The notes under the pieces were generated by a model. It made no database searches. It saw only the letters and a list, made by a program, of their open reading frames with translations, and was not told where the DNA came from. Of a stretch of DNA of 64,000 nt, positions 33,231 through 54,612 are shown piece by piece. Location of the stretch: NCBI GenBank assembly GCA_001414325.1, contig LLKB01000001.1, positions 758,437 through 822,436 on the forward strand, in the 5' to 3' direction. Origin of the DNA: Butyribacter intestini (GTDB lineage Bacteria; Bacillota; Clostridia; Lachnospirales; Lachnospiraceae). The position numbers and the translations under genes were made by a program. Every line of letters begins with the position of its first letter. The first letter of the stretch is position 1.

Positions 33231-33783
33231 TTGATCAGGGAAATGGAAATAGATTATAGAAATAATTGTATCAAATGAAGGGAGTTAAAGAGTTTTTTTA
33301 TATTCTATAGATGCGATGATTTTTCTGGAAATTTTAGAGGATAAAAATTGATGAGTAGGAAATTATCATTAACACAAGTTATTTTATTAAATACGTAACA
33401 TTCATTTTATTTTCAATACTTATGATTACGTCAGCGAGTATTGTTTATTCATTATGCTGTAACATTCATTTGAATAAAGGTTAGAGTAATGAGTGTATAA
33501 GTTGCATGGATAATGTGGGTTTTGTGTACTATATAAGCGATGATAAGACTATCACAATTGAGCGTGCTTTCAATGATGTGAATCATGACTAGAGATGAAC
33601 ATGTGACAAGATGACTCATATCAATCAATGGAAAAATTAGAAAGGAGATGTATTTCAGTTTAATCAAAGAACAATATGTAATAAAAAAAGGAATTATATG
33701 TTGTGTCCTTTGGATTGATAATAAGTTATTCTGGAATTGGATGATTTAGATGAAGGTCAAATACAAACGAGGAGGGATTTGCC
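33231..33783 (+). promoter_or_regulatory. AT-rich gap with a 13-bp direct repeat upstream of the peptide gene
   Basis: No convincing gene is present in these 553 bases. GTAACATTCATTT occurs at 33395-33407 and again at 33459-33471, 64 bases apart, about six helical turns. The region probably holds the promoter and activator sites of the cluster that follows. I could not assign -35/-10 boxes with confidence. It is also the junction between the GC-richer transfer genes and the AT-rich cargo. Confidence 0.4.
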
Positions 33784-33876
33784 ATGAGTAAAGTGATGCA
33801 GTTACAGGGTTTAATGAAGAAATTTTCTAAGAAAAATGCTGTAAAGGTATGTTCATATTCAACAGATCTTACTTAA
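33784..33876 (+). CDS. Short Lys-rich peptide, candidate RiPP precursor for the radical SAM enzyme
   Basis: 30 codons with GGAGGG eight bases upstream of the ATG. The peptide begins MSKVMQLQGLMKKFSKK and ends VKVCSYSTDLT. An amphipathic, basic leader followed by a short Cys/Ser/Tyr/Thr-rich tail is the layout of ribosomally made, post-translationally modified peptide precursors. The gene is 118 bases upstream of a radical SAM enzyme, and a strong hairpin lies in that gap, as is common between precursor and enzyme genes. Nothing in the sequence proves modification. It could also be a regulatory leader peptide, but the strong ribosome-binding site and composition favour a precursor. Confidence 0.55.
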   Translation: MSKVMQLQGLMKKFSKKNAVKVCSYSTDLT

Positions 33877-33895
33877 TTATAAGCATTTATTATTT

Positions 33896-33938
33896 GATTG
33901 GTATTATTCTGGCTGGATAAATCATCCTAATACCAATC
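33896..33938 (+). terminator. Partial terminator/attenuator between peptide and radical SAM gene
   Basis: GATTGGTATTA (33896-33906) pairs perfectly with TAATACCAATC (33928-33938). The 21-base loop can fold further (GGAT/ATCC). It is followed by an A/T-rich stretch without a long T-run, which suggests a leaky terminator or an mRNA-stabilising hairpin favouring the peptide transcript. Confidence 0.6.
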
Positions 33939-33994
33939 TAAATATTAAGTAATAAACATAAAAATGCTAACCGAGAGAGATAGGAGGAAAATAA

Positions 33995-34996
33995 ATGATA
34001 AATAAAACAGATGATTATTTGCATTTTAGTATAACAGCAACGGGGAGATGCAATGCTTCTTGTAGCTATTGTCATTTTTATGCAAAAAGACCACGTCAAA
34101 ATATGATGTATGACATAAATGAGTATATTTTTAGATATTATATTGATTTGATTAAGTTTATTAAAGAAGACATTGGACAAAAGAAAATTACATATCGACT
34201 GTCGGGAGGCGAACCGTTGGTGATGGGGGATAGAGTTTTTGAAATGTCTAGGTATGCGTATGACAGGATAGGTCAAAAACTAAATATTCTAACCAATGGA
34301 ATAGCATTAAATGATAATATCATAGAAAAGGCTAAAAAAAATAATGTAGGAGCATTTATTGTATCATTAGAGAATCCGTTCGAGGTTGCTGAGGGGGCTG
34401 CAAATCCTCAAAATATAGTAAATAAAATTATAGATTTTAATTCAGATGAATTGCAAGTTCTTCCGGGGATTGTAATTGTAAGCAATAAGATGTTTGGCGA
34501 ATTAGAACATATATGTGATTATTTTTATGAGAACTTGGGATGTATACCGCCGATTTCCGAGAAAACATATGCTTTTTATGAAAGCCCTACACAAAAAGAG
34601 TTGGAAGCGTTGAAAGAGAATGTGGCTAATATTGTTGAGAAATATAGTGAAAAGACAAATTTAGAGTTATTTCCCTATATTATCCCAGAAATTATTAATG
34701 ATGGTGGAAATGAGTACTTGGTAGAGCTTGACATTGAAGGTAATTCAATTAAAGAAACTTATAATGCTTCATATGATTATTTGATGAAAAAAATAAAAAG
34801 GTCATATCCAACTGTGCAATGTAATAAACAATGTGATTGGTCTGAGTTTTGTATTACAAGAAAATGGATTTGGGATTATTCTACTAACGATATTAATGCT
34901 GAAACAAAAAGAGAAGATTATTGTTTATTAAAGCAAAGCTTATGTGAAGGATATCTTGAAGGGATGCTTAGAATTGAGAATAAAAGAAAAGAATAA
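33995..34996 (+). CDS. Radical SAM enzyme with C-terminal cysteine cluster
   Basis: 333 residues with TAGGAGG before the ATG. C19, C23 and C26 form the CxxxCxxC iron-sulfur motif (GRCNASCSYCHF) at the first strand, followed by the GGEP-like SAM-binding motif RLSGGEPLV. The C-terminal part (about 270-325) has five further Cys (QCNKQCDWSEFC, then DYC and SLC), consistent with a SPASM or twitch domain binding an auxiliary cluster; such enzymes usually modify peptides. It stands between the short peptide gene and two kinase-like genes, all AT-rich and closely spaced. The natural substrate is probably the 30-residue peptide, or else a tyrosine-like small molecule. Confidence 0.8.
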   Translation: MINKTDDYLHFSITATGRCNASCSYCHFYAKRPRQNMMYDINEYIFRYYIDLIKFIKEDIGQKKITYRLSGGEPLVMGDRVFEMSRYAYDRIGQKLNILTNGIALNDNIIEKAKKNNVGAFIVSLENPFEVAEGAANPQNIVNKIIDFNSDELQVLPGIVIVSNKMFGELEHICDYFYENLGCIPPISEKTYAFYESPTQKELEALKENVANIVEKYSEKTNLELFPYIIPEIINDGGNEYLVELDIEGNSIKETYNASYDYLMKKIKRSYPTVQCNKQCDWSEFCITRKWIWDYSTNDINAETKREDYCLLKQSLCEGYLEGMLRIENKRKE

Positions 34997-35516
34997 TGTG
35001 ATTATAATATATGGAATGCCAGCAACTGGAAAGAGCATGATATCTGTGGTATTAGCTGACGAAATAAAAAAGAATATGCAAAAAAAGGTTTTTTTGATTT
35101 CGGGAGACAAGTTGGCAAATATATATTATGGAGGTGCACATACGGATTATGCGTTAAATTTAAAATATAAAAATTTTGAAGGTATTTTAGAAAATATTTT
35201 AGAGGTTGATGCAGATATAGTTATTGAAGATTTTTTTAAAAGAAGCGAAGATTTTTATAAAATTAAAAAAAATATTGATGGTCTGAATAGAAATCTCGTT
35301 ATAATTAGAATACAATGCGCACTCGAAGAGAGAATAATTAGGGATTCGTTTAGAGATTCTGGAAATGAATTGGGACTAGAGAAAATGCTTATATACCAAA
35401 AGAAATATGAACATATATGTAAGGGGTTACCCTATGATATATGTTTTGATTCAGGAAAAGAAACTATTGATAGCATTGTTAAAGAAATAGAGGGACTTAT
35501 TGGATATAATGAATAG
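34974..35516 (+). CDS. P-loop kinase-like protein
   Basis: Begins inside the end of the radical SAM gene; start codons TTG 34974 and GTG 34944 are both possible, so the N terminus is uncertain. The P-loop GMPATGKS lies about 15 residues in, followed by FLISGDKLANIYYGGAHTDY (a lid/substrate region) and VIEDFFKRSEDF (Walker B-like). The fold resembles AAA_33/adenylylsulfate-kinase-type small-molecule kinases of about 180 residues. It overlaps the next gene by eight bases. With the NDP-kinase-like neighbour it suggests that a phosphorylated or nucleotide-linked intermediate is made. The substrate is unknown. Confidence 0.65.
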   Translation: MRIKEKNNVIIIYGMPATGKSMISVVLADEIKKNMQKKVFLISGDKLANIYYGGAHTDYALNLKYKNFEGILENILEVDADIVIEDFFKRSEDFYKIKKNIDGLNRNLVIIRIQCALEERIIRDSFRDSGNELGLEKMLIYQKKYEHICKGLPYDICFDSGKETIDSIVKEIEGLIGYNE

Positions 35517-36216
35517 CTTATTTGTAATAATTAAACCTGATGCTCTGGAAAATAAGAGGGTAAGACAATATATATATCATGAACTATCAAAATTTGATAT
35601 AGTAATAGAGAAAAAAGTAAAAAGATTTACGACAAGTGAAGTTGAACAGCTATGGCCTGAAATAAATGAATCCAATGTCCTAAATGGCTTATTGAAGTGT
35701 TATTTAACATTGAAAAAAAGCGAGATACTTTTTCTTTTTGGAAATATTACGATTGATCAGTTGCTTTTATTAAAACAAAAAGTAAGAGATAAATATGCTA
35801 AAGGTAAATTTGCAAATTGTATACATACACCGCAAGATTTGCATGAATATAGTATGCAGTATAAAATCTTAACATGCAACAATGACTTACATGATGATGA
35901 AATTGATATGGTCGCTATAAATATTTGGACTATACTGCAAAAATATGGGTGGGATTATACATATACCAAAGGAAAAAATAAAAAATATAGAATTTATTTA
36001 GTAAATGACGATTATAATGAGATTGATTTTGTTGCCAAGTCTATTTGTGAGATAATTAGATATTATCCCATAGAAATTTGTTATATTTTAGCGTTGCAAA
36101 CGGAGTTTCATGGAAAAATATTTTTATATGGATGTGATGATGAAAGGCAAATTAATTCTATTGAAAGTGCGTTAAGAAATAGAAATATAGTAGTTTCAAG
36201 TGATTATAGGTTTTAG
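35509..36216 (+). CDS. Nucleoside-diphosphate-kinase-like protein with extra C-terminal domain
   Basis: 235 residues. Residues 3-125 follow the NDP kinase pattern: FVIIKPDAL at the first strand (Lys9 in the KPD motif) and FANCIHTPQDLHEYSMQ near 101-117, where His106 aligns with the catalytic His of the NVIHGSDS motif. The usual GSDS is replaced by TPQD, so activity may differ. Residues 126-235 form a second domain I do not recognise, with an LYGCDDERQI segment near the end. It is translationally coupled to the P-loop kinase (ATG within its last codons). A housekeeping NDP kinase would be about 135-150 residues and not lie in such an operon, so a specialised role is likely. Confidence 0.6.
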   Translation: MNSLFVIIKPDALENKRVRQYIYHELSKFDIVIEKKVKRFTTSEVEQLWPEINESNVLNGLLKCYLTLKKSEILFLFGNITIDQLLLLKQKVRDKYAKGKFANCIHTPQDLHEYSMQYKILTCNNDLHDDEIDMVAINIWTILQKYGWDYTYTKGKNKKYRIYLVNDDYNEIDFVAKSICEIIRYYPIEICYILALQTEFHGKIFLYGCDDERQINSIESALRNRNIVVSSDYRF

Positions 36217-36288: not shown

Positions 36289-36294
36289 AAAAAA

Positions 36295-36545
36295 AACGAT
36301 GAAGAGAATAAGTAGTAATACATCGACTTTTTCAGAGAGTTGTCGGCAGGTGAGAGACGCATAAGCAGTATTATGAATACATCTTGGAGTTGCATGGCTG
36401 AAAAATGAGTAGGTTATGTCGGTAAGCACCGTTATATGCTGGAGTATTTATTTTTAATACTTGCTAAGATGTATGGTGTGAGCCATATATAAACATAAGG
36501 TGGTAACACGAGAAAACTCGTCCTTTTGTAGGAGGAGTTTTTTTT
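36295..36545 (+). ncRNA. T-box riboswitch, tyrosine specifier (UAC)
   Basis: The diagnostic T-box sequence AAGGTGGTAACACGAG is at 36497-36512 and its pairing partner CGTCCT at 36519-36524. Upstream is a Stem I-like region starting GATGAAGAGAATAAGTAG, with a GGTGAGAG element near 36351 and a bulged GAATACA segment in which TAC (36378-36380) is the expected tyrosine codon. The leader ends in a terminator (36515-36545): a stem with T at 36538-36545. When tRNA-Tyr is uncharged the antiterminator forms and transcription continues to the synthetase gene. The specifier matches the downstream enzyme. The Stem I fold is read by eye and not modelled. Confidence 0.85.
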
Positions 36546-36546
36546 A

Positions 36547-37195
36547 GTTTACCCAGCATGGGCGTAATCTAATCGGTGAAAGACCGTAAAGTGCCCTGAT
36601 AGTGGGAAACTTACAGCCAATGACAAGGGTGTCCATCGTGAGGTGGAATCTAAAGGAAGTCGGATGGCAAACCTCTGGTCTGACGGACAGAAATCACATA
36701 TAAGGCATGGTATATCGGGTAAGGTTGCTAAACAAACTGAAGCCCAATAACTATCCGAAGGTGTACTGTGTAAATGTGGCAGATAGGTGGAGGGAAAGAT
36801 TACGTACCTTAACTGGGGAAATCTGTATGGTATGCTTTGTAGAGTAATGAACAGATTTACTCCTTAGTAACCCATATCGTAAGGTATGGCTGAACATACA
36901 GAAGTCAGTTCGAGTCATAGTACCGAAGAAGTCTATGAAAGTAGATGGAGGAAAGGACTTGACGGTTGGGATAAGACAGACACTATTTATCTGATACTTG
37001 AAGATGGCAGTTGCTCGAAAGAGGTTGCTTATTTGAGGGTAGGTTGGAAACCGAGAGTAAAGGATAAGAACGCCTAGAGATAGGAATAGGTAGTGTAAGG
37101 CATAGGCACATCTTAGAACAACCGAACCGCCGCTTGCGGAACCGCATGAGCGGTGGTGTGAGAGGACGGGGGCTAGTCACCCCCTCCTACTCGAT
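36547..37195 (+). mobile_element. ORF-less group II intron (degenerate or trans-acting)
   Basis: About 650 bases with group II intron organisation. A domain I-like 5' part (CCCAGCATGGGC near 36552, GAGGTGGAATCTAAAGGAAG near 36640) leads to a short domain IV. The 3' end has a domain V-like hairpin (ACCGCCGCTTGCGGAACCGC to GAGCGGTGGT, about 37121-37157) and a domain VI-like GGGGGCTAGTCACCCCC, ending CTACTCGAT. Domain IV keeps no reverse transcriptase; the 63-codon open frame inside it lacks any such motif. The 5' end reads GTTTA rather than the usual GTGYG. It lies directly after the T-box terminator, as terminator-targeting introns do, in the leader of the synthetase gene. Boundaries are approximate. 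Confidence 0.7.
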
Positions 37196-37249
37196 TTACA
37201 ATGGAAGCATAAAAATATTTCAGTAAAGAGAGATTGGAGAGGTGATAGG

Positions 37250-39169
37250 ATGTTTTTAAAAATTGAAAAAGAAATTTGTGACATTGGAAATGGAATATAT
37301 TCAGGTGCAGTTATTGCCTATGGCATTAATAGTAGTGAAGAAAATTCGACTGTTAATGATTTGTATAATAAACAGATGGAGAAAATTATAGAGGAATATA
37401 AATTAGAAACGGTTAAAGAAGATGAAAATGTCCAATTATATAGAAATGCTATGAAAAAAATAGGTGTTAATCCATCTAAATATCCACCATCAGTTGAGGC
37501 TCTTTTAAAAAGGATTGTTCGTAATCAAGATGTTACTTCATTTTGTTCTATTCTTAATTTGGTAAATTATATCTCTATTAAGTACAGAATACCAGTTGGT
37601 ATTCATGATATTGATTCATTAGAAAATGGATTATGTTTGAGGCTTGCTACAGAAAATGATTGTAATGCAGAAAAGGATGTTCCTGATATTGGAGAACCGA
37701 TTTATGCCTCAGGAAACAGTGTTAGAACTAGAAGATGGTTTTGGAGACAGACATTGGAGGGAAGAATATCCCCTGAGTCAAAAAATTTTATTTTTTTATT
37801 GGATGGATTTGTTGACAATAAAGTTACCATTGACATGGCCTGTGAGGAACTTATGCACTTGTTGAGTGTTGTTTATATGGTTAGAGCAGAAAGAAGGATG
37901 CTTTCGAGTGAAAATCCTGAAATATTTTTTGGTTCGCTTAATGAGGAAGAGAAGGAAATTGAAAATCAAATCAATATTATGTTAAAAGGTGTAGCTCAAA
38001 ATACGGGAGAGTTTGAAATCAGACAAAAGCTCAAAAATTCGTATAGAGAAGGAAAACCATTAAGAATAAAATTGGGACTCGACCCTTCAGCTCCGGATAT
38101 TCACCTTGGACATTCTGTTGTCTTACGCAAAATTAGACAATTGCAGGATTTAGGTCATAAAGCGATTATTATTATTGGAGATTATACTGGAATGATAGGT
38201 GATCCGACAGGAAAGTCTAAGACACGGAAACAATTATCAAAAGAAGAAGTGAAGAAAAACGCGGATACGTATCTAGCTCAAATATTTAAAATAATTGATA
38301 AAACAAATACGGAAGTATATTATAATAGCGAATGGTTTAGCAAAATGGAATTTAGTGATATTATTGAATTAGCTTCGAAGTGTACAGTCGCAAGAATGTT
38401 AGAACGAGATGATTTCAATAATAGATTTTCAAAGCATTTACCGTTATCGGTTCATGAGTTTTTTTATCCATTAATGCAAGCGTATGATTCTGTCGCAGTA
38501 AGGGCAGATATTGAATTGGGAGGAACTGATCAAACATTTAACATTTTATTGGGTAGAAACATTCAAAAAGCTTATGGTCAGAGCCCTCAATTGACTCTGT
38601 TTATGCCTTTGCTTGAAGGAACAGACGGAATTGAAAAAATGAGCAAAAGTTTAGGAAATTATATAGGAATTGATGAATCTCCTGTTGTCATGTATGAAAA
38701 GGTGATGAAAATACCAGATGACTTAATTATAAAATATTATACTTTATGTACGGATTTGCATCCAAATGAAATTGAAAAAATTCAAAAAAAATTAACAAAT
38801 GGTGTTAATCCTAGAGATATAAAAATGTTGTTGGCATATGAGATAACGATGTTATATCATAGTAGAGCGGATGCTGATTATGCGCAGGAGCATTTTAAAA
38901 TGGTATTTCAGAATGAACATATACCAGAGGATGCACCAATACTGAATATTAATAGAGAGAGTTTGATATTGCCATCGGAACAAGTTATTGAAATTTTAGT
39001 GAGAGAAGGTTATTTTAAGTCAAAAAGTGAAGTGAGACGTTTGTTTATCCAAGGAGGGGTCAAACTTGATGGAATACAAATTAGAAACTCTGATGATTTG
39101 AATTTGAAAGAAGGGGAACAGGTTTTAAGAATTGGAAAATCTAAATATTTTAAAATTATATTGAAATAA
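37250..39169 (+). CDS. tyrS: Fusion of a B3/4 editing-type domain with tyrosyl-tRNA synthetase
   Basis: 639 residues. Residues 1-235 match the B3/4 domain of phenylalanyl-tRNA synthetase beta chains and free-standing relatives (YPPSVEALLKRIVRNQDV, then NLVNYISIKYRIPVGIHDID and RTRRWFWRQTLEGRIS); in PheRS this domain removes wrongly attached tyrosine. Residues about 240-639 are a complete class Ic TyrRS: HIGH-like DIHLGHSVVL, KMSKS in IEKMSKSLGNY and a C-terminal S4 RNA-binding domain (SEVRRLFIQGGVKLDG). Control is by the upstream tyrosine T-box. A B3/4-TyrRS fusion is unusual and may reject a tyrosine analogue. Its place in a radical SAM cluster suggests self-protection rather than housekeeping, but that is inference. 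Confidence 0.85.
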   Translation: MFLKIEKEICDIGNGIYSGAVIAYGINSSEENSTVNDLYNKQMEKIIEEYKLETVKEDENVQLYRNAMKKIGVNPSKYPPSVEALLKRIVRNQDVTSFCSILNLVNYISIKYRIPVGIHDIDSLENGLCLRLATENDCNAEKDVPDIGEPIYASGNSVRTRRWFWRQTLEGRISPESKNFIFLLDGFVDNKVTIDMACEELMHLLSVVYMVRAERRMLSSENPEIFFGSLNEEEKEIENQINIMLKGVAQNTGEFEIRQKLKNSYREGKPLRIKLGLDPSAPDIHLGHSVVLRKIRQLQDLGHKAIIIIGDYTGMIGDPTGKSKTRKQLSKEEVKKNADTYLAQIFKIIDKTNTEVYYNSEWFSKMEFSDIIELASKCTVARMLERDDFNNRFSKHLPLSVHEFFYPLMQAYDSVAVRADIELGGTDQTFNILLGRNIQKAYGQSPQLTLFMPLLEGTDGIEKMSKSLGNYIGIDESPVVMYEKVMKIPDDLIIKYYTLCTDLHPNEIEKIQKKLTNGVNPRDIKMLLAYEITMLYHSRADADYAQEHFKMVFQNEHIPEDAPILNINRESLILPSEQVIEILVREGYFKSKSEVRRLFIQGGVKLDGIQIRNSDDLNLKEGEQVLRIGKSKYFKIILK

Positions 39170-39303: not shown

Positions 39304-39483
39304 CTTGTTTTCTTTCTTATAATAATTGTAGGGTATTTTTTGCTAGATCGACAATCTTGAGATGTATAGTCGGAGTCTTGCATGTATTGGGCAGGCATAT
39401 GACATAAGATAATTAGATTTATATAATCGAAAAATTTGATTTTATTCAAATGGTGACTTTTTGAAAAATGAGAGGTGAACAAA
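39304..39483 (+). other. Gap before the nucleotidyltransferase, no gene seen
   Basis: With the preceding terminator this is a 314-bp stretch without a gene between 39170 and 39483. I see only AT-rich sequence that must contain the promoter of the next gene; no convincing -35/-10 pair or hairpin. Confidence 0.4.
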
Positions 39484-40944
39484 ATGAAAAAAGAAGATAG
39501 ACTTTTATTGGAAGCTATAGATGTTGAAAATGAAGTCGCTGAAGTCGAGGAGGAGTATGATTGGGAGTATTTGTTTTCTATGGCAAAGTTAAATAAAATA
39601 TTTATTCCATTTTATTTAAAAAACAGAATGTTGATGCCAGAAAATGTAAGGGAAAAATTTTTAAAACAATATCATAAATATAAAGAATATGCTGAACAAC
39701 AGAAGACGGAAATGATAAAAATTACTAAACTGTTTAATAAAGAGAAGATTACATATCTTGTAATCAAAGGTATTCCGTTGTCACAGATTATTTATGATAG
39801 AATAGACTATAGACAAAGTACAGATATAGATATACTAGTTTCTGAAGAAGATATGGATTTAGCATTTGAAATGCTTAAACAGTTGGGGTATGGTTTTAAT
39901 ATGGGGATAGAGTGTGAAACAAATGAAGTGCAATTAGGAGTTAGACCTATGCTATATTATGCCACAGATTATTTTGAATATCCGTGTGTTAAAGTTATGG
40001 ACACAGGTATGTATTCATTTGTTGAAATAAAGAAAGCATCATCTGCTATAACGGTAAAGTATATTAGAGATTTTATTGGGAATAGCGTGATATTTAGTAT
40101 TGATGGATATTGTGTTAAAACGTTAAGTATTGAGTACACTTGTTTGCATTTGTTTGCTAATTTCTATGAAAATATTAAGTCTAATAAAGCTGTAAAGAAA
40201 GGAAGTTTTTTAAGAGAATTTTATGATATATATTCGTTTATGCGAAAAAATGCTGATATGGATTGGGAGATGTTATTGTATAAAGCAAAAAAATATAATA
40301 TGTCGCACAAAGTGTTATTTGCAATGAATTTGTGTAATGAATTATATCGGAAAAAAGTATTTAGTGATGATTTGATAAAAAGGTTTGAGAAAAATATTGG
40401 GGAGATCACTGATAAAGAAGACATACAGTTTATTTATCAGTGGACAGGAGATGTTAAACAAAATATTTTTAATAAAGAATTTAGAATAAGACAGTATAAT
40501 AAAGTGTATGAAGATTTTTTGCTTCATTATGTAAAAAAGAAGAGACTTGATATTAAGAAAAATACAAAGTGGAAAAAAATGAATTTTCATTACGAAGGGG
40601 AAATAGAATTTCAATATAGAATATATCACAATTTTGATAAATCGTTTTCCATTGAAATAGACGATTGTAATAATAATTTATATCAAAAAAAATGTAATAT
40701 TTATATTGAAATATTACATTTTGGTAAAAAAAATATATGTGAAATCATAGTTGGAGAAAATTACTTTTTTGGAAATGAAATAGATTGTGAGTGTTACAAA
40801 GAAAAGAAAAATGATAATATTTGGAAAATAAGAGTACTAAATGAGATGGAAAAATTTTATTTGAAACTTGAAATTAGAATTAAAGTGGGGACTGAAGGGT
40901 TTTGTAGAATAGGACCTCAGGCAGAAAACATATTTTATGTATAG
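39484..40944 (+). CDS. Nucleotidyltransferase-family protein (NTP_transf_5 type)
   Basis: 486 residues from the ATG with GAGAGG eight bases upstream (a GTG nine bases earlier is too close). The central part has the pattern of the uncharacterised nucleotidyltransferase family PF14907: TYLVIKGIPLSQIIYDRIDYRQSTDIDIL (about 90-118, given as a region), where KG and the D-x-D of TDIDIL form the nucleotide/metal site, followed by helical LCLHLFANFYE-like segments. PF14907 proteins often occur in peptide-natural-product clusters. The last 150 residues are beta-rich and AT-biased with no family I know. The gene has its own leader after the synthetase terminator. The reaction is unknown. Confidence 0.65.
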   Translation: MKKEDRLLLEAIDVENEVAEVEEEYDWEYLFSMAKLNKIFIPFYLKNRMLMPENVREKFLKQYHKYKEYAEQQKTEMIKITKLFNKEKITYLVIKGIPLSQIIYDRIDYRQSTDIDILVSEEDMDLAFEMLKQLGYGFNMGIECETNEVQLGVRPMLYYATDYFEYPCVKVMDTGMYSFVEIKKASSAITVKYIRDFIGNSVIFSIDGYCVKTLSIEYTCLHLFANFYENIKSNKAVKKGSFLREFYDIYSFMRKNADMDWEMLLYKAKKYNMSHKVLFAMNLCNELYRKKVFSDDLIKRFEKNIGEITDKEDIQFIYQWTGDVKQNIFNKEFRIRQYNKVYEDFLLHYVKKKRLDIKKNTKWKKMNFHYEGEIEFQYRIYHNFDKSFSIEIDDCNNNLYQKKCNIYIEILHFGKKNICEIIVGENYFFGNEIDCECYKEKKNDNIWKIRVLNEMEKFYLKLEIRIKVGTEGFCRIGPQAENIFYV

Positions 40945-41233
40945 AATAGAAATATCGTTTTTTGCTGGTATGTAATTGCTTGTATTAAAACAGAAATAGG
41001 TTAAGTGAATAATCCAGCATCCTTGTTTTTTATGTTCGGTGCTTGGAAACGGCAAATCTGTTTTTAAGAAAATTATCATCCCGGCATGTGTCAGAATCCT
41101 GAAAGACAAAGAGTATAAAAACATTCTTGTAATTGGTTCAGAAGACCTACTGTCAGGAACAATAGACAGCAGGCTCATATAGACAGCACACGGTATCACA
41201 AGAGGGAATGACTATTATCGGAGGTAAGTGTAT

Positions 41234-41610
41234 ATGACAAACCAAAGAATAATTGATGAATTAAATGAAATGTGCCTGATCGCTATGGCAGATGCATTCC
41301 GCAGCTAGATAAATGATCCGAAACTCAAAGAGATCCCATTTGAGGACCAGTATGGCATGCCGGTTGACATTGGACACAGCAGCCGGAAAGTAAACTTTTA
41401 AAATAGCTTATCTGTGATGCTGGATTTGATCAGCCTGATGTAAGCATTATGATATCAATTACACTTCGAGGCGTAAAATTAATAAAGAGCAGCTTAATCG
41501 CTTTGCCTCCTGAGAATATATATCTAAATTCCGGAATCTACTTATAACTAGTGCCAAAGACAGTGGAAAACATGCATGGTCTTTGCCTTTGGTCTAGAAG
41601 CTTGTAATAT
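41234..41610 (+). pseudogene. istB: Degenerate IS21-family istB (helper ATPase) remnant
   Basis: Broken reading frames recover the IstB pattern: LNEMCLIAMADAFR then a stop, NDPKLKEIPFEDQYGM, then after a frameshift SRRKLNKEQLNRFAS, CEYISKFRNLLITSAKDSGK (the decayed P-loop) and WSLPLV/GLCLWS. Stops and shifts make it non-functional. It splits the nucleotidyltransferase from the FkbM gene and shows that an IS21 element once inserted here. Sequence at 41035-41190 just upstream may be part of the same decay but I cannot assign it. Confidence 0.65.
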
Positions 41611-41743
41611 ATTAAGGGATATGCAAGAACTACTGTAAATATTGTACATTGGATTCTATTCTTCGGTTTCACGAAGAATAATATATTATGCAAGAAGATT
41701 TTTCTTTGGATAAATCCATTAACAAATTAGGAAGGATAAGAAA

Positions 41744-42895
41744 ATGATTACATTAATAAAAAAAGAAATTGAAGAGATGAATACAGAAATATGTTCCTAT
41801 ATTGAGAAAGTAAAAGAAAAAACGGTAATACTTTATCCATATAATGATCAAAGTATAAAACTGGCTAAAATAATGAAGAATGAGATGGGAATAGTCGTGG
41901 AGTATTACTGCGGAAAAGAGAAAGAGGTACTAGAAAGTAATGTTATTTCGTTGGATGATTTGAAAATAATGTCCTCCATGAATGATATTGTTATTGTATT
42001 ATCAGAGCCTACGAAAACATGGTTTGATGACTATAGCTTACTTAAAACATTTGGAATAAACGATAAACAAATTCTTAATTATGAACAGATAAAGTATTAT
42101 ATTGCAATACAAGAAAATGGGTATATTGAGGGATTTTTGGAACAAATATTTAAATCAGGATTAGATAATTTGAAATTTTCACGTAGCTATATAATTCTTA
42201 CAAATATAGAAAAATGCAAAAGTGTATATGATTTATTAGAGGACACTCTGTCTCGAAAGACATATTTAAGAATATTATGTAAAAATATAATGCAATGCAA
42301 ATTTTATTTTGATTTACCTCAAAGCAAACAATATTTTGATGAATCTGTCTTTAAAATTAGTGATAACGAATCGTTTTGGGATGTGGGAGGATATGATGGT
42401 GATACTATTCAACAATTTGTGGAATGTTGTGATGGAAAATACGATAGTATTGTCACATTTGAACCTGATAAGGAAATGTTTGTAAAATTAGTTTCCAATT
42501 CAGTGCAATATAAAAATATTATATATTTTAATGCAGGTTTATGTGATAATACGGGAATGATGATGTTTCAAAAAAGAAAATTTGGTGCCTCTCGTATAGT
42601 TGAAAATGATAATAATGATAACGATATCTCAAAAATATATGGCATAAAAGGAGATGATATACATCTGAAACCAACATATATTAAAATGGATATAGAGGGG
42701 GCAGAGAAGGAGGCATTAGCAGGAATGAAAAATACAATACAATTATTTTTCCCCAAGATGGCAATTTGCATATATCATGAACCAGAGGATATATGGGAAA
42801 TTCCACTTATGATTAAAAAAATTTCAGAGAAATATCATATTGCAATTCGACATCATTCGTATACTTCATCAGAGACGGTATGTTATGCATATTGA
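41744..42895 (+). CDS. FkbM-family methyltransferase
   Basis: 383 residues. Residues about 200-380 have the FkbM layout: SAM-binding motif WDVGGYDGDTIQQF, FEPDKEMF (acidic loop), then IKMDIEGAEKEALAGM, the family hallmark. The N-terminal 190 residues form a Rossmann-like alpha/beta region (ILYPYNDQSIKLAKIM, DIVIVLSEP) frequently seen before FkbM domains in surface-sugar and natural-product loci. FkbM enzymes O-methylate sugars or peptides. It is AT-rich like the other cluster genes and lies after the istB remnant, so it is the probable last gene of the 33-43 kb cluster. The substrate is unknown. Confidence 0.75.
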   Translation: MITLIKKEIEEMNTEICSYIEKVKEKTVILYPYNDQSIKLAKIMKNEMGIVVEYYCGKEKEVLESNVISLDDLKIMSSMNDIVIVLSEPTKTWFDDYSLLKTFGINDKQILNYEQIKYYIAIQENGYIEGFLEQIFKSGLDNLKFSRSYIILTNIEKCKSVYDLLEDTLSRKTYLRILCKNIMQCKFYFDLPQSKQYFDESVFKISDNESFWDVGGYDGDTIQQFVECCDGKYDSIVTFEPDKEMFVKLVSNSVQYKNIIYFNAGLCDNTGMMMFQKRKFGASRIVENDNNDNDISKIYGIKGDDIHLKPTYIKMDIEGAEKEALAGMKNTIQLFFPKMAICIYHEPEDIWEIPLMIKKISEKYHIAIRHHSYTSSETVCYAY

Positions 42896-43056
42896 TTGGG
42901 GATTATTGTTGATATATGATCACTTCCTCAGGATAATAACACTTCATGTGAGAGTGAATAACATAGATTTTTGTGATGTCTAATGCTTTTAGTTATTAAC
43001 TGTTAGAACTGCAAAATCTAACATTGTTACATATGAAGCACAGCTGCAATTTGCGA

Positions 43057-44412
43057 GAGTGTGATACTTTTTCTGTAAAATAATGATTAGAATGTTCTTC
43101 TATGATAAAATAAATATCATTAGGAGGACCTTTTATTATGGCAAGACAAAAGAAACCTGTACATCGAGTACAAATGACAGAGGGAAAGAGAAACATTATT
43201 CATCAGCTTCTTGAAGAGTATGATATCCAGTCCGCAGAAGATATCCAGGATGCTCTAAAAGACCTTTTAGATGGCACGATAAAGGAAATGATGGAGGCTG
43301 AAATGGATGACCATCTCGGTTACGAAAAATCAGAGCGGTCAGACAATGACGATTACCGGAATGGTTATAAGACTAAGCAGGTCAACAGCCGATATGGTTC
43401 CATGAAGATCGAGGTGCCGCAAGATTGTAGATCGACCTTTGAACCACAGGTGGTAAAGAAGCGTCAGAAGGATATTTCTGATATTGACCAAAAGATTATC
43501 TCAATGTATCCAAAAGGCATGACCACACGCCAGATCTCGGAAACCATTGAGGATATCTATGGATTTGAGACATCAGAAAGTTTTATTTCAGATGTGACAG
43601 ATAAGATCCTTCCACAGATTGAGGATTGGCAGAACCGGCCGCTGGATGAGGTGTATCCAATCCTTTATATTGATGCGATACATTATTCTGTGCGGGATAA
43701 CGGCGTGATCCGAAAACTTGCTGCATATGTCATTCTTGGAATTAATACCGAAGGAAAAAAGGAAGTCCTGACGATCAATGTTGGGGATAACGAAAGCGCG
43801 AAATATTGGCTTTCTGTCATGAATGAACTGAAAAATCGAGGGGTAAAAGATGTTTTGATCATATGTGCCGATGGACTGATCGGAATCAAGGAAGCGATCG
43901 CTACAGCATTTCCTAAAACAGAGTATCAGCGTTGTATCGTGCATCAGGTAAGAAACACCCTGAAATATGTTCCGGATAAAGATAGAAAATCTTTTGCAAC
44001 GGATCTAAAAACTATCTATCAGGCTGCTGATGAAAAGAAAGCACTGGCTGCCTTAGATCATGTGACAGAAAAATGGACTCCGAAATATCCGAATTCTATG
44101 AAACGCTGGAAAGAAAACTGGGATGCCATATCCCCGATTTTCAAGTTCTCAACAACCGTCAGAAAGGTCATTTATACGACCAACGCGATTGAATCCCTGA
44201 ATTCCACCTACCGTAAACTGAACCGCCAGAGAAGCGTATTTCCGAGCGATACAGCCCTGCTGAAAGCCCTGTATCTGGCTACGTTTGAAGCAACGAAAAA
44301 GCGGACAACAAGAATCCGGAATTGGGGGCAGGTCTATGGCGAATTGAGTATTATGTATGAAGGACGATTACCGGAATAATACATTTGCTGAAATAGTACA
44401 TTACATTGTAAA
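43057..44412 (+). mobile_element. IS256-family insertion sequence
   Basis: One transposase gene flanked by imperfect inverted ends: TGTGATACTTTTTCTGTAAA on the left (from about 43061) and, on the other strand, TGTAATGTACTATTTCAGCAA at the right (near 44405) as a degenerate match. I could not find a clear target duplication, so the limits are approximate. GC content is higher than in the flanking DNA. Confidence 0.6.
43138..44379 (+). CDS. IS256-family transposase
   Basis: 413 residues with TTAGGAGG upstream. The mutator/IS256 signature is clear: an N-terminal EAEMDDHLGYEKSER region, NGYKTKQVNSRYGSMKIEVPQDC (region near 78-100), DDE residues in YIDAIHYSVRD and ICADGLIGIKEAI, and the C-terminal TTNAIESLNSTYRKLNRQR with the catalytic Glu. 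The frame is intact, so it is probably active. It sits between the biosynthetic cluster and the quorum-sensing locus, a useful source of recombination. Confidence 0.95.
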   Translation: MARQKKPVHRVQMTEGKRNIIHQLLEEYDIQSAEDIQDALKDLLDGTIKEMMEAEMDDHLGYEKSERSDNDDYRNGYKTKQVNSRYGSMKIEVPQDCRSTFEPQVVKKRQKDISDIDQKIISMYPKGMTTRQISETIEDIYGFETSESFISDVTDKILPQIEDWQNRPLDEVYPILYIDAIHYSVRDNGVIRKLAAYVILGINTEGKKEVLTINVGDNESAKYWLSVMNELKNRGVKDVLIICADGLIGIKEAIATAFPKTEYQRCIVHQVRNTLKYVPDKDRKSFATDLKTIYQAADEKKALAALDHVTEKWTPKYPNSMKRWKENWDAISPIFKFSTTVRKVIYTTNAIESLNSTYRKLNRQRSVFPSDTALLKALYLATFEATKKRTTRIRNWGQVYGELSIMYEGRLPE

Positions 44413-45015: not shown

Positions 45016-45354
45016 ATGGCGTTAAATGATAAATCTGTAGGTCAAAAAATAAGGGATTTGCGAAAAATAAACCACATGACGCAGGTTAAATTTTGTGAAA
45101 GGATGCACATGACACAGCAAACTCTCAGCAGATATGAGACTGGAGGAAATCCGGTGCCAAATGATGTTTTGGATAATATTGCCAGAGAGTTTAATATTCC
45201 AGTCAGTTATTTTTGGGGAATTAGTACAGATAATTATACGGAAGATGAGGTTTGTTTATTGCAATATTATCGAAAAGTAGATGATCGATTGAAGGAAAGA
45301 ATTTTAGATTTGGTACGAATTATGGCAGAGGATTTTGAGGAAAGAAAAGAATAG
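45016..45354 (+). CDS. XRE-family transcriptional regulator
   Basis: 112 residues from the ATG with GAGAGG seven bases upstream. The N-terminal 60 residues are a lambda-repressor-type helix-turn-helix (VGQKIRDLRKINHMTQVKFCERM, then TQQTLSRYETGGNPVP). The short C terminus is helical. It directly precedes the response regulator, 16 bases away, and is probably transcribed with the Agr-type pair; a palindrome in its promoter suggests autoregulation. It may connect element control with peptide signalling. Confidence 0.8.
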   Translation: MALNDKSVGQKIRDLRKINHMTQVKFCERMHMTQQTLSRYETGGNPVPNDVLDNIAREFNIPVSYFWGISTDNYTEDEVCLLQYYRKVDDRLKERILDLVRIMAEDFEERKE

Positions 45355-45370
45355 TGGGACACATTATAAT

Positions 45371-46108
45371 ATGAATGTTTTAATTTTAGAGGACAAGAAA
45401 AATAACAGAGATGCTTTGTGCAAGATCATATCGTCTTGTACAGGTGTCACTTCCATTTATACATTTAGTGGATGTGGGGAAGCCTTGCAATGTGCTATGG
45501 ATAGTCATATTGACTTGTTTTTGTTAGATATTATTTTAGAGCCGGATAAAGGGAATGATAACTCTGGCATTCTATTTGCTGAAAACATAAGGAAATATAA
45601 TGAATATAAATTGACACCAATTATTTTTATTACAGTATTGGCTGGTTTGGAACGTGATTTGCTGAAACGTATCCATTGCTATGATTACATTGAAAAACCA
45701 ATTGGGGATGGCAAATTGGTTAAAAAACATATAGAAGAAGTCTTGGATGCGATATCCACAGGAAAAAAGACGGATTCTAGAGAATATATTCCTTTACACT
45801 ATGATGGTATTGGATATATGATATTTTTAGACGAAGTTATCTTCTTTGAAAATAAATCGGGTGCATTATATATTCATATGGTGGATGATGAGATTCGTGT
45901 TCCTAATTATTCAGCCAAAAAATTTAACGGAAAGATTCGCCGTTCTAGATTTTTGACACCGATTTATGGAACTTATGTTAATACAGATTATATTGCAAAT
46001 GTGGATTTTCGTAATCGTGAAGTATATATGAAAAATGATAGTGTTGTTCCCATCGGTGGAAGAAAGTTCAAAAAATTTAAAGAGGAATATTTAGAAGATA
46101 GGAGATAA
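45371..46108 (+). CDS. agrA: LytTR response regulator (AgrA-like)
   Basis: 245 residues. A receiver domain (1-125) with acidic pair E7/D8 and phospho-acceptor D53 (LFLLDIILEPD) and the switch Lys in YIEKPIG. The C-terminal LytTR DNA-binding domain (about 140-245) shows IFLDEVIFFENKSGALYIH and FLTPIYGTYVNTDYIANV. It is the probable target of the downstream histidine kinase, as AgrA is of AgrC. No clear ribosome-binding site precedes the ATG, so translation may be coupled to the XRE gene. Confidence 0.85.
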   Translation: MNVLILEDKKNNRDALCKIISSCTGVTSIYTFSGCGEALQCAMDSHIDLFLLDIILEPDKGNDNSGILFAENIRKYNEYKLTPIIFITVLAGLERDLLKRIHCYDYIEKPIGDGKLVKKHIEEVLDAISTGKKTDSREYIPLHYDGIGYMIFLDEVIFFENKSGALYIHMVDDEIRVPNYSAKKFNGKIRRSRFLTPIYGTYVNTDYIANVDFRNREVYMKNDSVVPIGGRKFKKFKEEYLEDRR

Positions 46109-46140
46109 TTTACTTTTATTGTATTTTTTGGGGTGGAGTA

Positions 46141-47403
46141 ATGTCAGAGTATGTTGTTGTTGCTAACTGTTTGTTAGAAATAGGATGTTTATCAAAATCT
46201 GTGGAAGCAATTACAGGGAAGAAAGAAAATAGAGATAAAATTATACAATATGTATTTGTTGCTTTCGTGTTAGCAATTAGTATGTACATTAATCTATATA
46301 ATGGTGATAGAATATTTCAACTATTTCATTATGTAGCACTATTTATCTTTTTTAAGATTCGATATGAAATGGATGTTATTGACACACTAACATATTCTAT
46401 ACTTGCTTTTTTAGTGGTTGGAGCATTGGAACTGTTTGTATATGTGCCATATAATTTGATTTGTTATATTTTACAGATTAAGGATGATTTTTCATTTTTT
46501 GTAGTTCTGGTTGTTTATGCGATTTGCTGTGTATTAAATAGATGTGGAATAATTATTGTCAATGGAAAATGGATTGATTCATATAAAGATAAGATTAACA
46601 TACGTTTTTTTATTATATTGTTCACTTTGTTGCTGGCTTTTATTATCAGCTTGATTAAATTTCGAAAAGGATTGTCCTGGTCAGAAGGAGCTTATTTATC
46701 AGGAGCTTTTTTTATATTTTTGGTTTTTATTCAAAAGGTAAGTACATATCAGATGGAAATAGATTGTCACAAGCGATATGAAGAAAAATATGGGGAAGTC
46801 ATAACGGAGTTGAGGGAGCGGCAGCATAAATTCATGAATCAGTTAGATTCTGTGTATGCGTTATGCAAAATATATGACAATTATGATGAGCTGGTACAAC
46901 ATCAAGCATTGGAACTGAACCATTTGAGAAAATATATGATGTCAGGAAAATTGTTGATTTTAGATAGACCTCTTGTCATAGCGCATATATATACTAAGCT
47001 GTGTGAGGCGGAAGAAAAACATATTCAACTACAGACTGATTTTTCCTGCAGTTTAAATAATATGAATATTCCTGATATCTTTCTTATTGAGATTATTGGT
47101 AATTTGTTAGACAACGCGATGGAGGAGGTGCTTGCAAGGGGAAAACATGAGAGGATCGGCATGAAAATTACAGATGCCGGAAATGAAATATGTATATCTG
47201 TTGGCAATGAACATGAGAAGATCCCATATAGTGAATATAATCAATTTTTTAAAGAGGGTTATTCTTCAAAAGGCAATTGGCGTGGAGTTGGTCTACCTTA
47301 TGTGAAAAAAATAGCAGATAAATTTCACGGGAATATTGAAGTTGGAAATGTTATATATGGAAAAGAAAATTATTTCGTTGTGAGCATTTATTTTAAAAGA
47401 TAG
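46141..47403 (+). CDS. agrC: AgrC-like sensor histidine kinase
   Basis: 420 residues with GGGGTGGAG upstream. The N-terminal 205 residues contain about six membrane helices, as in AgrC-type receptors for cyclic peptides. The dimerisation region LRERQHKFMNQLDSVYAL holds the phospho-accepting His near 228, and the GHKL ATPase has the N box LLDNAMEEV near 322 and a G box SSKGNWRGVGL. It should sense the peptide made by the convergent agrB/agrD pair and phosphorylate the response regulator upstream. Length and order are normal for the family. Confidence 0.85.
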   Translation: MSEYVVVANCLLEIGCLSKSVEAITGKKENRDKIIQYVFVAFVLAISMYINLYNGDRIFQLFHYVALFIFFKIRYEMDVIDTLTYSILAFLVVGALELFVYVPYNLICYILQIKDDFSFFVVLVVYAICCVLNRCGIIIVNGKWIDSYKDKINIRFFIILFTLLLAFIISLIKFRKGLSWSEGAYLSGAFFIFLVFIQKVSTYQMEIDCHKRYEEKYGEVITELRERQHKFMNQLDSVYALCKIYDNYDELVQHQALELNHLRKYMMSGKLLILDRPLVIAHIYTKLCEAEEKHIQLQTDFSCSLNNMNIPDIFLIEIIGNLLDNAMEEVLARGKHERIGMKITDAGNEICISVGNEHEKIPYSEYNQFFKEGYSSKGNWRGVGLPYVKKIADKFHGNIEVGNVIYGKENYFVVSIYFKR

Positions 47404-47429
47404 GGGTCAGATGACCCCAGATGATTGAT

Positions 47430-47461
47430 GCAGAGTAAAACGGTGTTCTGTTTTATTCTGC
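47430..47461 (+). terminator. Terminator after agrC, overlapping the end of agrD
   Basis: A 12-base stem, GCAGAGTAAAAC (47430-47441) with GTTTTATTCTGC (47450-47461), followed by ATTGTTTTCTTT. It ends agrC transcription and lies over the last codons of the convergent agrD. A smaller hairpin GGGGTCA/TGACCCC is at 47403-47418. Confidence 0.6.
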
Positions 47462-47593
47462 ATTGTTTTCTTTGCATGGATATTTCGGTTCACCAAAAAA
47501 GACAATACAGCTGCCTTTATAATGAAAAAATGGTGTTAATGCCAGTGCAAGAGTACATATACCTGTGATAGCTTGAAGCAAACGCCTTTTCAT
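47453..47593 (-). CDS. agrD: AgrD-like autoinducing peptide precursor
   Basis: 46 residues starting MKRRLLQAITGICTLALAL and ending PKYPCKENNAE. The start overlaps the agrB stop (ATGA), the normal agrBD coupling. The leader is an amphipathic helix; C29 is followed by IVFF and then GEPKYP, which corresponds to the conserved D/E-E-P-x-x-P tail after the mature peptide in AgrD proteins. The predicted signal is a peptide ending in SCIVFF with a five-residue Cys-to-Phe thiolactone ring, the same ring size as staphylococcal signals. The exact N-terminal cut is unknown. The gene is too short for most gene finders. Confidence 0.8.
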   Translation of the reverse strand: MKRRLLQAITGICTLALALTPFFHYKGSCIVFFGEPKYPCKENNAE

Positions 47594-48144
47594 AATGCTT
47601 TTTCTCCTTCCTTATTTAGATTGGCAACAGCAAGTTGCATAGTTTGTAAAACAATTACCCAAAAACAAAGATTTCTGTATGGGAAAGTATTTGTTGTAAG
47701 AAAAAGTCCAAAGTATACAAAAAGAACAGTCATACCACAGCAATGATAAATTTTTTCTAATTTAGCAGATAGCGGAGGTCTGTTAACAGAAGTGATTGGT
47801 TTCATTATAGCTGAAACTAGAATTATCACAGCCAATAGACCGATTTGGAATTTGTTATTTAATAATACTAAATGTGACAGCATAATTCCAATACTGCTAA
47901 ATACGAAAGAGAATGCAAGGCATGTAGCATAATGATTACAATGAAACCCACCCAAAAAGTTGCGTAGAGAAGTCAGAAACAAAATTTCAATGCAGAATTC
48001 TTTACCTAAATGCAAAAAATAAAAAAACATAAATAAAACGATGAATTTACTGACATCATAAATGACACAAAGGTATGAATACCGTAAAAGTCCTAACTCA
48101 TATGAGGAAAATGTACTTTTAAGATGTTCCTTAATAGCTTCCAT
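47590..48144 (-). CDS. agrB: AgrB-like peptide-processing membrane protease
   Basis: 184 residues with five or six membrane segments. The catalytic pair is visible: H68 and C75 in SLRNFLGGFHCNHYATC, with the seven-residue spacing and the RN-GGFH context of AgrB cysteine proteases. It cuts the C-terminal tail from AgrD and forms the thiolactone. The stop overlaps the agrD start. The gene is on the minus strand, convergent with agrC, whereas classical agr loci are all in one direction. Confidence 0.85.
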   Translation of the reverse strand: MEAIKEHLKSTFSSYELGLLRYSYLCVIYDVSKFIVLFMFFYFLHLGKEFCIEILFLTSLRNFLGGFHCNHYATCLAFSFVFSSIGIMLSHLVLLNNKFQIGLLAVIILVSAIMKPITSVNRPPLSAKLEKIYHCCGMTVLFVYFGLFLTTNTFPYRNLCFWVIVLQTMQLAVANLNKEGEKAL

Positions 48145-54210: not shown

Positions 54211-54612
54211 AAATTACGGGGCATGTACCTGGAGGATGAAAGTCACAGCTATCATATTAGTAGTCTGATGGATCGAAAGATGAAGGGCGAGAAGCTGGAT
54301 GGAAATCTGGTAAAAGGGCGCAAGAGATCCGGTGGATCTCTGCTCTGCGCGGACCGAAGCGAAGCGTAGACCGGCATGTTGCGTAAGGATAATTAACCAC
54401 AGAGGGCGAGAAGTTCGTCCTTATCCTCAAAAGGCTAAAAGAGGAGATAGTGCTTCTGATAATTCAGAAGGGCGTCGTGAAACACATTTTGTGGCTCGTC
54501 TGTAACTCCCGGAGGTGAGAACACCTCTTTGTACACGGGGCGATATAGGAGTCTAGAAGACTGGCGTGTACCTACATGCTTAGCATTAAGCATAGCCATG
54601 TAGACTATATCA
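54211..54612 (+). ncRNA. Large structured noncoding RNA candidate
   Basis: About 400 bases with no open frame, higher G+C than its flanks and many hairpins: AGAGATCC/GGATCTCT near 54326, AAGGATAA/TTATCCT around 54385-54425, CTTCTGA/TCAGAAG near 54455, GAGGTG/CACCTC near 54511, GTACAC/GTGTAC enclosing AGTCT/AGACT near 54530-54570, and TACATG/CATGTA enclosing GCTTA/TAAGC near 54573-54603. Size and complexity recall large ornate bacterial RNAs such as ROOL or GOLLD that travel with mobile elements, but I cannot assign it to a class. It lacks group I or group II intron landmarks. Confidence 0.55.

What the first reader, a model, noticed from the sequence alone, without database searches (positions are those of the whole stretch)
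33784..36216. Candidate new peptide-modification cluster: 30-residue peptide, radical SAM enzyme, P-loop kinase and NDP-kinase-like protein
A short Lys-rich peptide ending in VKVCSYSTDLT, with a strong ribosome-binding site and a downstream perfect hairpin, precedes a CxxxCxxC radical SAM enzyme with a C-terminal Cys cluster. Two kinase-like genes follow with overlapping ends. Radical SAM/SPASM enzymes commonly modify such peptides (known), but pairing with an adenylylsulfate-kinase-like P-loop protein and an NDP-kinase-like protein with an altered catalytic loop (HTPQD) is not an arrangement I know. It suggests a phosphorylated or nucleotide-linked peptide product (inference).
Basis: partly seen in the sequence, partly recalled or inferred. 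Interest (0 to 1): 0.78.

Follow-up and report, generated by a model that had tools for sequence, protein, structure and literature searches.

The report
Mobile peptide-modification cassette with editing TyrRS
A rare gene set found in two bacterial genomes appears to modify a tiny gene-encoded peptide and carries its own tyrosine-charging enzyme with a proofreading domain, which suggests, but does not prove, that the product interferes with tyrosine use and that the enzyme protects the producer.

Summary
A 30-residue peptide (33784-33876), a radical SAM enzyme, an APS-kinase-like P-loop protein and an NDK-like protein are followed by a tyrosine-type T-box (36290-36528) and a second tyrosyl-tRNA synthetase fused to a B3/4 aminoacyl-tRNA editing domain (37250-39169). 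All five genes and the T-box recur in the same order in a related element of an uncultured Lachnospiraceae genome (L004); the shared peptide core is VKVC[SC]YSTDL[ST]. A distant radical SAM homologue (36%) on a Caballeronia plasmid is also preceded by a peptide, ending WSSDSF (shared ending: aromatic-S-[ST]-D-x-x). The NDK-like protein also has a weak but above-cut-off ClpS-like (N-degron-binding) domain. The B3/4 domain's nearest solved structure is CtdA, a deacylase that guards against a toxic amino-acid analogue. Best reading: a ribosomal-peptide pathway to a tyrosine antimetabolite or TyrRS poison, with the editing TyrRS as T-box-induced immunity. Cassette and homologies are shown; chemistry, product and immunity are inferred. 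The B3/4-TyrRS fusion also occurs without the cassette in one other genome, so it was probably recruited. Only two full cassettes were found.

The parts
33770..33775 (+). AGGAGG, likely ribosome-binding site of the peptide
   Evidence: sequence
33784..33876 (+). 30-aa putative precursor peptide MSKVMQLQGLMKKFSKKNAVKVCSYSTDLT
   Evidence: homologue MTKVDRLASLVKKLTKSSNVKVCCYSTDLS at the same place in L004; constraint at amino-acid level
33896..33938 (+). hairpin between peptide and radical SAM gene (11-bp perfect arms), perhaps setting the peptide-to-enzyme ratio (inference)
   Evidence: a different hairpin at the same place in L004
33995..34996 (+). radical SAM enzyme, 333 aa, CxxxCxxC plus four conserved C-terminal Cys
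   Evidence: homologues L004:10001-11002 (69-70%) and L003:9953-11065 (36%)
34944..35516 (+). P-loop protein, APS-kinase/CPT-like (start uncertain: GTG 34944 or GTG 34998)
35509..36216 (+). NDK-like domain (conserved NCxHTPxD) followed by ClpS-like domain
36290..36528 (+). T-box leader, specifier UAC (Tyr)
   Evidence: RF00230 130.9 bits; L004 118.5 bits
36632..36958 (+). group II intron domain hits between T-box and TyrRS; no full intron-encoded protein seen
   Evidence: RF02001 150.8 bits and RF01998 44 bits; weak trace at the same place in L004, 27.9 bits, E 0.0011, below gathering
37250..39169 (+). B3/4 editing domain fused to TyrRS (second TyrRS of the genome)
39475..40944 (+). NTP_transf_5 nucleotidyltransferase-like protein, possible accessory gene only
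   Evidence: PF14907 123.2 bits; cannot be judged in L004, whose contig ends 241 nt after the TyrRS

Best explanation
This is a mobile biosynthesis-plus-immunity cassette. The 30-aa peptide is a precursor whose C-terminal core VKVC[SC]YSTDL[ST] is modified by the radical SAM enzyme, probably at or beside the conserved aromatic residue. The P-loop kinase and the NDK/ClpS-like protein then phosphorylate the product or pass a phosphate or nucleotide to it; the ClpS-like domain would hold a peptide with a free N-terminal aromatic residue such as Tyr. The product, or a breakdown product, acts as a tyrosine analogue or tyrosyl-adenylate mimic that poisons ordinary TyrRS or is mischarged onto tRNA-Tyr. 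The cassette's own TyrRS, with a CtdA-like domain, is the immunity gene. Its Tyr T-box turns it on when tRNA-Tyr is uncharged, that is, when the poison works. Shown: the gene unit, its conservation in two different settings, the domain homologies, the Tyr specifier, and that this TyrRS is an extra copy. Inferred: site and nature of the modification, phosphorylation, toxicity, immunity, release and export.
For: The same five genes and T-box occur in two related elements at different positions: after a T4SS coupling-protein (TraG-type) gene in the window, after a helicase-like and a SpoVG gene in L004. Both host genomes also have another, TyrS-type TyrRS (type read by eye from the sequences), and in 2 of 2 of these no T-box reached the gathering score in the about 1.4 kb held upstream. 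Both cassette T-boxes read UAC at the specifier (place of the specifier recalled). The B3/4 domain's best solved relative is CtdA (E 6.8e-17), which deacylates canavanyl-tRNA-Arg and prevents misincorporation (PMC10018355, abstract and sections 17 and 22 read). In G395 the fusion is the only TyrRS found, the other two PF00579 hits being TrpRS by eye, so the fusion is likely an active synthetase; that genome is 84% complete. The core ending is shared with a distant locus. The ClpS match is above Pfam cut-off in both proteins. Precedents: agrocin 84 and its self-immunity LeuRS (PMC5059758), microcin C and AspRS (PMC9239234); title and start of abstract seen in the listing.
Against: The fusion also exists in G395 in a chromosomal setting without the peptide, kinases or T-box; a radical SAM gene does lie beside it there, on the other strand, but is not recognisably related (27% over 86 residues, E 0.058). 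A T-box-controlled close relative without B3/4 exists in G179. So neither fusion nor T-box is specific to poisoning. The Caballeronia plasmid has no TyrRS or TrpRS and no kinase annotated near the gene; its chromosomes were not searched. No exporter or protease shows among the seven sequences scanned. ClpS and NDK similarities are weak: ClpS 24.3 and 24.4 bits against a cut-off of 23, NCBIfam 18.6 of 107 (ClpS) and 13.5 of 155 (NDK), PDB ClpS matches only E 0.12-0.27. Only two full cassettes are known. No product or activity has been shown.
Confidence: 0.42

Rival explanations
1. The TyrRS is a travelling spare: an editing, T-box-controlled TyrRS that helps the host in tyrosine shortage or against tyrosine analogues from outside, functionally unrelated to the peptide pathway, which makes some other modified peptide (signal or bacteriocin).
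For: Fusion without cassette in G395 and a related T-box TyrRS in G179; the four TyrRS form one group at 100/100.
Against: The TyrRS keeps its place after the peptide genes in 2 of 2 full cassettes although the genes upstream differ; the core tyrosine is conserved in both.
Confidence: 0.22
2. The TyrRS supplies Tyr-tRNA as a building block: tyrosine is attached to the peptide and then modified, as in pearlin pathways.
For: Second TyrRS in a peptide cassette; pearlins are amino-acid-derived products made on a carrier peptide (PMC9303977, PMC9016710, titles and starts of abstracts in the listing).
Against: No LanB-like ligase or other aminoacyl-tRNA-using transferase among the seven sequences scanned with Pfam and NCBIfam; an editing domain is not needed for this role; the peptide already contains Tyr.
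Confidence: 0.1
3. A phage-defence or abortive-infection module that happens to use a modified peptide, carried as cargo of a mobile element.
For: Radical SAM similarity to pVip viperin models (44.8 and 35.9 bits) and cargo position beside conjugation genes.
Against: No PADLOC match at E 0.1 for 5 of the 7 sequences (peptide, NDK/ClpS, TyrRS, NTP_transf_5, FkbM), and only weak P-loop matches; the viperin match is far below the NCBIfam cut-off (43.6 of 180 bits) and covers only about 100 residues.
Confidence: 0.1
4. The kinases and radical SAM enzyme act on nucleotides (viperin-like chain terminator) and the peptide is incidental.
For: Two nucleotide-kinase-like proteins beside a radical SAM enzyme.
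Against: A peptide with the shared ending in 3 of 3 confirmed loci, one of them without kinases nearby; conserved C-terminal Cys in the enzyme.
Confidence: 0.06

Closest known systems
Radical SAM RiPP pathways (SPASM/twitch maturases)
   Same: short precursor-like peptide with RBS and hairpin just before a radical SAM gene with extra C-terminal Cys
   Different: none of the 25 NCBIfam families listed (of 50) is near its cut-off, no SPASM or RRE Pfam hit; APS-kinase-like, NDK/ClpS and TyrRS partners
CtdA canavanyl-tRNA deacylase (PMC10018355)
   Same: B3/4 domain homologous to its structure (9f7e, E 6.8e-17; a second B3/4 protein, 9mkl, E 5.2e-13)
   Different: fused to a TyrRS rather than standing alone; substrate unknown
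Microcin C and agrocin 84 (synthetase poisons)
   Same: small product thought to hit a tRNA synthetase; agrocin producers carry a self-immunity synthetase (PMC5059758, title and start of abstract)
   Different: no ThiF-like adenylyltransferase among the seven sequences scanned; radical SAM and NDK-like proteins instead; target inferred only
TyrZ-type TyrRS with Tyr T-box (B. subtilis TyrZ, recalled)
   Same: KLGLDPSAPDIHLGH-type TyrRS behind a Tyr T-box
   Different: B3/4 fusion, seen in 2 of 23 matches at 1e-125 in 397 genomes of the family

Membership tests
Radical SAM RiPP cluster | conserved precursor peptide beside the radical SAM gene | tested here: met
   3 of 3 confirmed loci
Radical SAM RiPP cluster | enzyme modifies the peptide | not testable with these tools
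   needs co-expression and mass spectrometry
SPASM peptide maturase | SPASM domain and family match above cut-off | tested here: not met
   no SPASM Pfam hit at E 1; best NCBIfam match is viperin, 43.6 of 180 bits, best SPASM maturase 43.1 of 600; four conserved C-terminal Cys only
RRE-dependent RiPP | PqqD-like recognition element | tested here: not met
   no such Pfam hit in the seven sequences; distant RREs could be missed
Viperin | family match above cut-off | tested here: not met
   43.6 of 180 bits
TyrRS | full catalytic domain, HIGH-type and KMSKS motifs | tested here: met
   TIGR00234 375.4 bits, cut-off 113.8; HLGH and KMSKS in both
B3/4 editing (CtdA-like) | homology to a proven deacylase | tested here: met
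   9f7e E 6.8e-17
B3/4 editing (CtdA-like) | deacylase activity on a mischarged tRNA-Tyr | not testable with these tools
   needs enzymology
NDK | domain match and catalytic His in NxxH motif | tested here: inconclusive
   L004 30.8 bits, cut-off 27; window 21.5, below cut-off; NCxHTPxD invariant in the two, meaning of motif recalled; no fold hit at E 0.001 on a low-confidence model, NDKs lead at E 0.003-0.02
ClpS | domain match | tested here: met
   24.3 and 24.4 bits, cut-off 23; weak by NCBIfam (18.6 of 107) and PDB profile (E 0.12)
ClpS | N-degron-binding residues (recalled: N34, D35, H66) | tested here: inconclusive
   N and D kept in both; the His column holds Glu by the alignment
Microcin C type | ThiF-like MccB | tested here: not met
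   no ThiF hit in the seven sequences

The most novel reading that the evidence does not exclude
A ribosomally encoded tyrosine antimetabolite or TyrRS poison, made by radical SAM plus phosphotransfer chemistry with an N-degron-type domain holding the peptide, and paired with an editing TyrRS as self-inducing immunity through a T-box. This would be a new class of peptide antibiotic whose target can be read from the cluster.
Probability: 0.32. Interest if true: 0.88.

Novelty: new variant of a known kind. Interest (0 to 1): 0.66.

Why it matters
If true, it shows a route from a gene-encoded peptide to a poison of tyrosine charging, names the target from the immunity gene, and adds an NDK-ClpS protein as a new kind of tailoring partner. 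It would also show an aminoacyl-tRNA editing domain used as antibiotic immunity, which is directly testable with purified parts.

Tried and rejected
Searching for more cassettes gave little. Viral contigs: 0 confirmed relatives in 6 scans. Phages: 0. Plasmids with the radical SAM protein: 1 of 72,556 records, Caballeronia. Whole genomes with the radical SAM protein or alignment: only the own genome among 397 (family), 392 (order) and 398 (phylum), and only G478 among 244 relatives of G478; these samples overlap. The genome-contig scan rested on two short patterns; 7 of 107 stretches were relatives by tblastn, of which L004 alone is close. L005-L010 (27-35% identity over 75-125 residues) were dropped on that ground; only the records of L005 and L010 were searched further (4.3e-9 and no match).

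The B3/4 part alone matched 174 plasmid records, all under 60% identity; 19 cover at least 80% of the query, and of the 20 rows listed 17 carry names of stand-alone B3/4 or PheRS-beta-related proteins, 2 have no record annotation and 1 no feature. I did not check these for fusions.

Structure models were made from two sequences each: P-loop protein pLDDT 65, NDK/ClpS protein 53, so their fold hits are supporting only. The first TyrRS tree contained wrongly picked frames (L025, L027) and was rebuilt with 15 rows: 13 of the 14 non-own loci returned (L025 left out; 8 of its 23 matches had no locus) and the two cassette proteins. Promoter and terminator scans were at chance level (25 found against 22.5 expected; 1 against 1.0). 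Viperin and pearlin readings were set low for the reasons given under rivals.

Among the papers listed I saw none that describes such a cassette; the searches closest to that question are no paper; no paper. The library holds open-licence papers only, and lists were capped.
Full report
WHAT IS THERE. The peptide (33784-33876) has AGGAGG eight bases upstream. A hairpin lies between it and the radical SAM gene (33995-34996). The P-loop gene and the NDK-like gene follow closely; the NDK-like gene overlaps the P-loop stop, and the P-loop start is uncertain. Pfam gives PF04055 for the radical SAM protein (49.3 bits), ClpS for the C-terminal part of the last protein (24.3 bits, cut-off 23) and sub-cut-off matches to CPT, APS_kinase and NDK. 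The unit goes on: a T-box (130.9 bits), group II intron pieces and a 639-aa protein made of a B3/4 domain (51.2 bits) and a TyrRS (TIGR00234 375.4 bits).

IT IS A CONSERVED UNIT. A two-row profile of the window and Caballeronia radical SAM proteins found one close relative in genome contigs: L004, an uncultured Lachnospiraceae bacterium (RUG11188), at 70% identity. L004 carries, in the same order, a 30-aa peptide MTKVDRLASLVKKLTKSSNVKVCCYSTDLS, the radical SAM gene, the P-loop gene, the NDK/ClpS gene, a T-box (118.5 bits) and a B3/4-TyrRS fusion. Identities are 69% (radical SAM), 46% (P-loop), 43% (NDK/ClpS) and 56% (fusion). The five proteins or domains tested show constraint (dN/dS 0.14-0.36), and the peptide has pS 0.78 against pN 0.31, on only 30 codons. 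A weak trace of the same group II intron family sits between T-box and TyrRS in L004 (27.9 bits, E 0.0011, below the gathering score), which suggests common descent of the whole unit.

IT MOVES AS A UNIT. The window's element has a relaxase (PF03432 89.5 bits) and a T4SS coupling protein (PF02534 183.2 bits). The two surroundings share related genes: local identities are 48% (helicase-like protein), 43% (coupling protein) and 34% (relaxase). But the cassette follows the coupling-protein gene in the window and follows the helicase-like gene and a SpoVG gene (PF04026) in L004. Nucleotide similarity of the cassette appears in three blocks, from 10 bases before the radical SAM gene into the TyrRS; the short peptide gene itself gave no blastn hit at 1e-4 and is aligned by protein only. 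L004's contig ends 241 nt after the TyrRS, so the window's NTP_transf_5 and FkbM genes cannot be judged.

THE DISTANT RELATIVE. On Caballeronia sp. NK8 plasmid pNK84 a 36% identical radical SAM protein is preceded by a 62-aa ORF (L003:9736-9924) ending LLSIMWSSDSF, whose stop lies 28 bases before the radical SAM start. Its ending and ours share aromatic-S-[ST]-D-x-x. This ending occurs in 4 of 8367 stop-to-stop frames of at least 20 codons in the loci held at that time (eight duplicate loci left out, some overlap remaining); three of the four are these peptides and the fourth, in L035, is in an unrelated place. No kinase is annotated in the 21 kb shown, and the plasmid has no TyrRS or TrpRS; the strain's chromosomes were not searched.

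THE TyrRS. Both host genomes have three PF00579 proteins: the cassette fusion, a TyrS-type TyrRS and a TrpRS (types read by eye). So the cassette copy is extra. Both T-boxes read GAA-UAC-A at the specifier place, the Tyr codon (the place of the specifier is recalled). A survey of 397 genomes of the family gave 23 matches at 1e-125: the fusion in 2 (own genome and G395) and TyrRS without B3/4 in 21; more diverged fusions could lie below that threshold. In G395 the fusion stands in a chromosomal setting without the peptide, kinases or T-box. A radical SAM gene (PF04055) does lie beside it there on the opposite strand, but it shows no clear relation to ours (E 0.058). The fusion is the only TyrRS found in G395; the other two hits look like TrpRS (genome 84% complete). 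A midpoint-rooted tree of 15 TyrRS rows puts window, L004, G395 and G179 in one group at 100/100. So the editing TyrRS was probably recruited into the cassette. The B3/4 domain's nearest solved relative is CtdA (E 6.8e-17), a deacylase that clears canavanyl-tRNA-Arg and prevents canavanine incorporation (PMC10018355: abstract and sections 17 and 22 read).

THE PHOSPHOTRANSFER PROTEINS. The L004 P-loop protein passes the APS_kinase (35.4, cut-off 21.1) and CPT (32.2, cut-off 22) scores. The nearest solved structure by profile is a probable adenylyl-sulfate kinase (2yvu, E 2.9e-7), and Foldseek also lists O-phosphoseryl-tRNA kinase among its top ten (model pLDDT 65). The L004 NDK-like domain passes the NDK cut-off (30.8, cut-off 27) and ClpS (24.4, cut-off 23); other libraries give only weak support. 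Foldseek with the low-confidence model (pLDDT 53) finds mostly NDKs at E 0.003-0.02 and nothing at 0.001. NCxHTPxD, with the His where NDKs carry theirs (recalled), is invariant in the two. No ordinary NDK was found in either host genome. ClpS binds N-terminal Tyr, Phe, Trp or Leu (recalled). The N and D of its amine site are kept and the His column holds Glu.

MECHANISM. Four clues point at tyrosine or an aromatic N-terminus: the core Tyr (Trp in Caballeronia), the ClpS-like domain, the Tyr T-box TyrRS and the B3/4 editing domain. I therefore favour a product that mimics tyrosine or tyrosyl adenylate, with the editing TyrRS as immunity. Uncharged tRNA-Tyr would itself switch on the immunity gene. 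None of the chemistry is shown, and the TyrRS could be a passenger (rival 1).

LIMITS. Only two complete cassettes are known, one at a contig end in a metagenome assembly. Searches covered samples, and pattern-based scans can miss relatives. The taxonomic name of the window's host was not determined.

Noticed in passing
window 45335-48144: Agr-like quorum-sensing set: LytTR response regulator and GHKL histidine kinase, AgrB (PF04647 79.5 bits) and a 46-aa AgrD-like ORF at 47453-47593 (-) with SCIVFFGEPKYP (AgrD likeness by eye).
   Followed up: partly
window 36632-37200: Group II intron domain hits without a full intron-encoded protein, between a T-box and its TyrRS gene; a weak trace sits at the same place in L004.
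   Followed up: partly
L035:10698-12647: Chromosomal B3/4-TyrRS fusion that may be the only TyrRS of its genome (G395), beside a different radical SAM gene (L035:12654-13496, opposite strand); no T-box found there.
   Followed up: partly
window 39475-44379: NTP_transf_5 protein and FkbM methyltransferase follow the TyrRS, then a Mutator-type transposase at 43138-44379; the first two may be accessory to the cassette.
   Followed up: no
window 54258-54576: Clostridiales-3 RNA, 249.1 bits.
   Followed up: no
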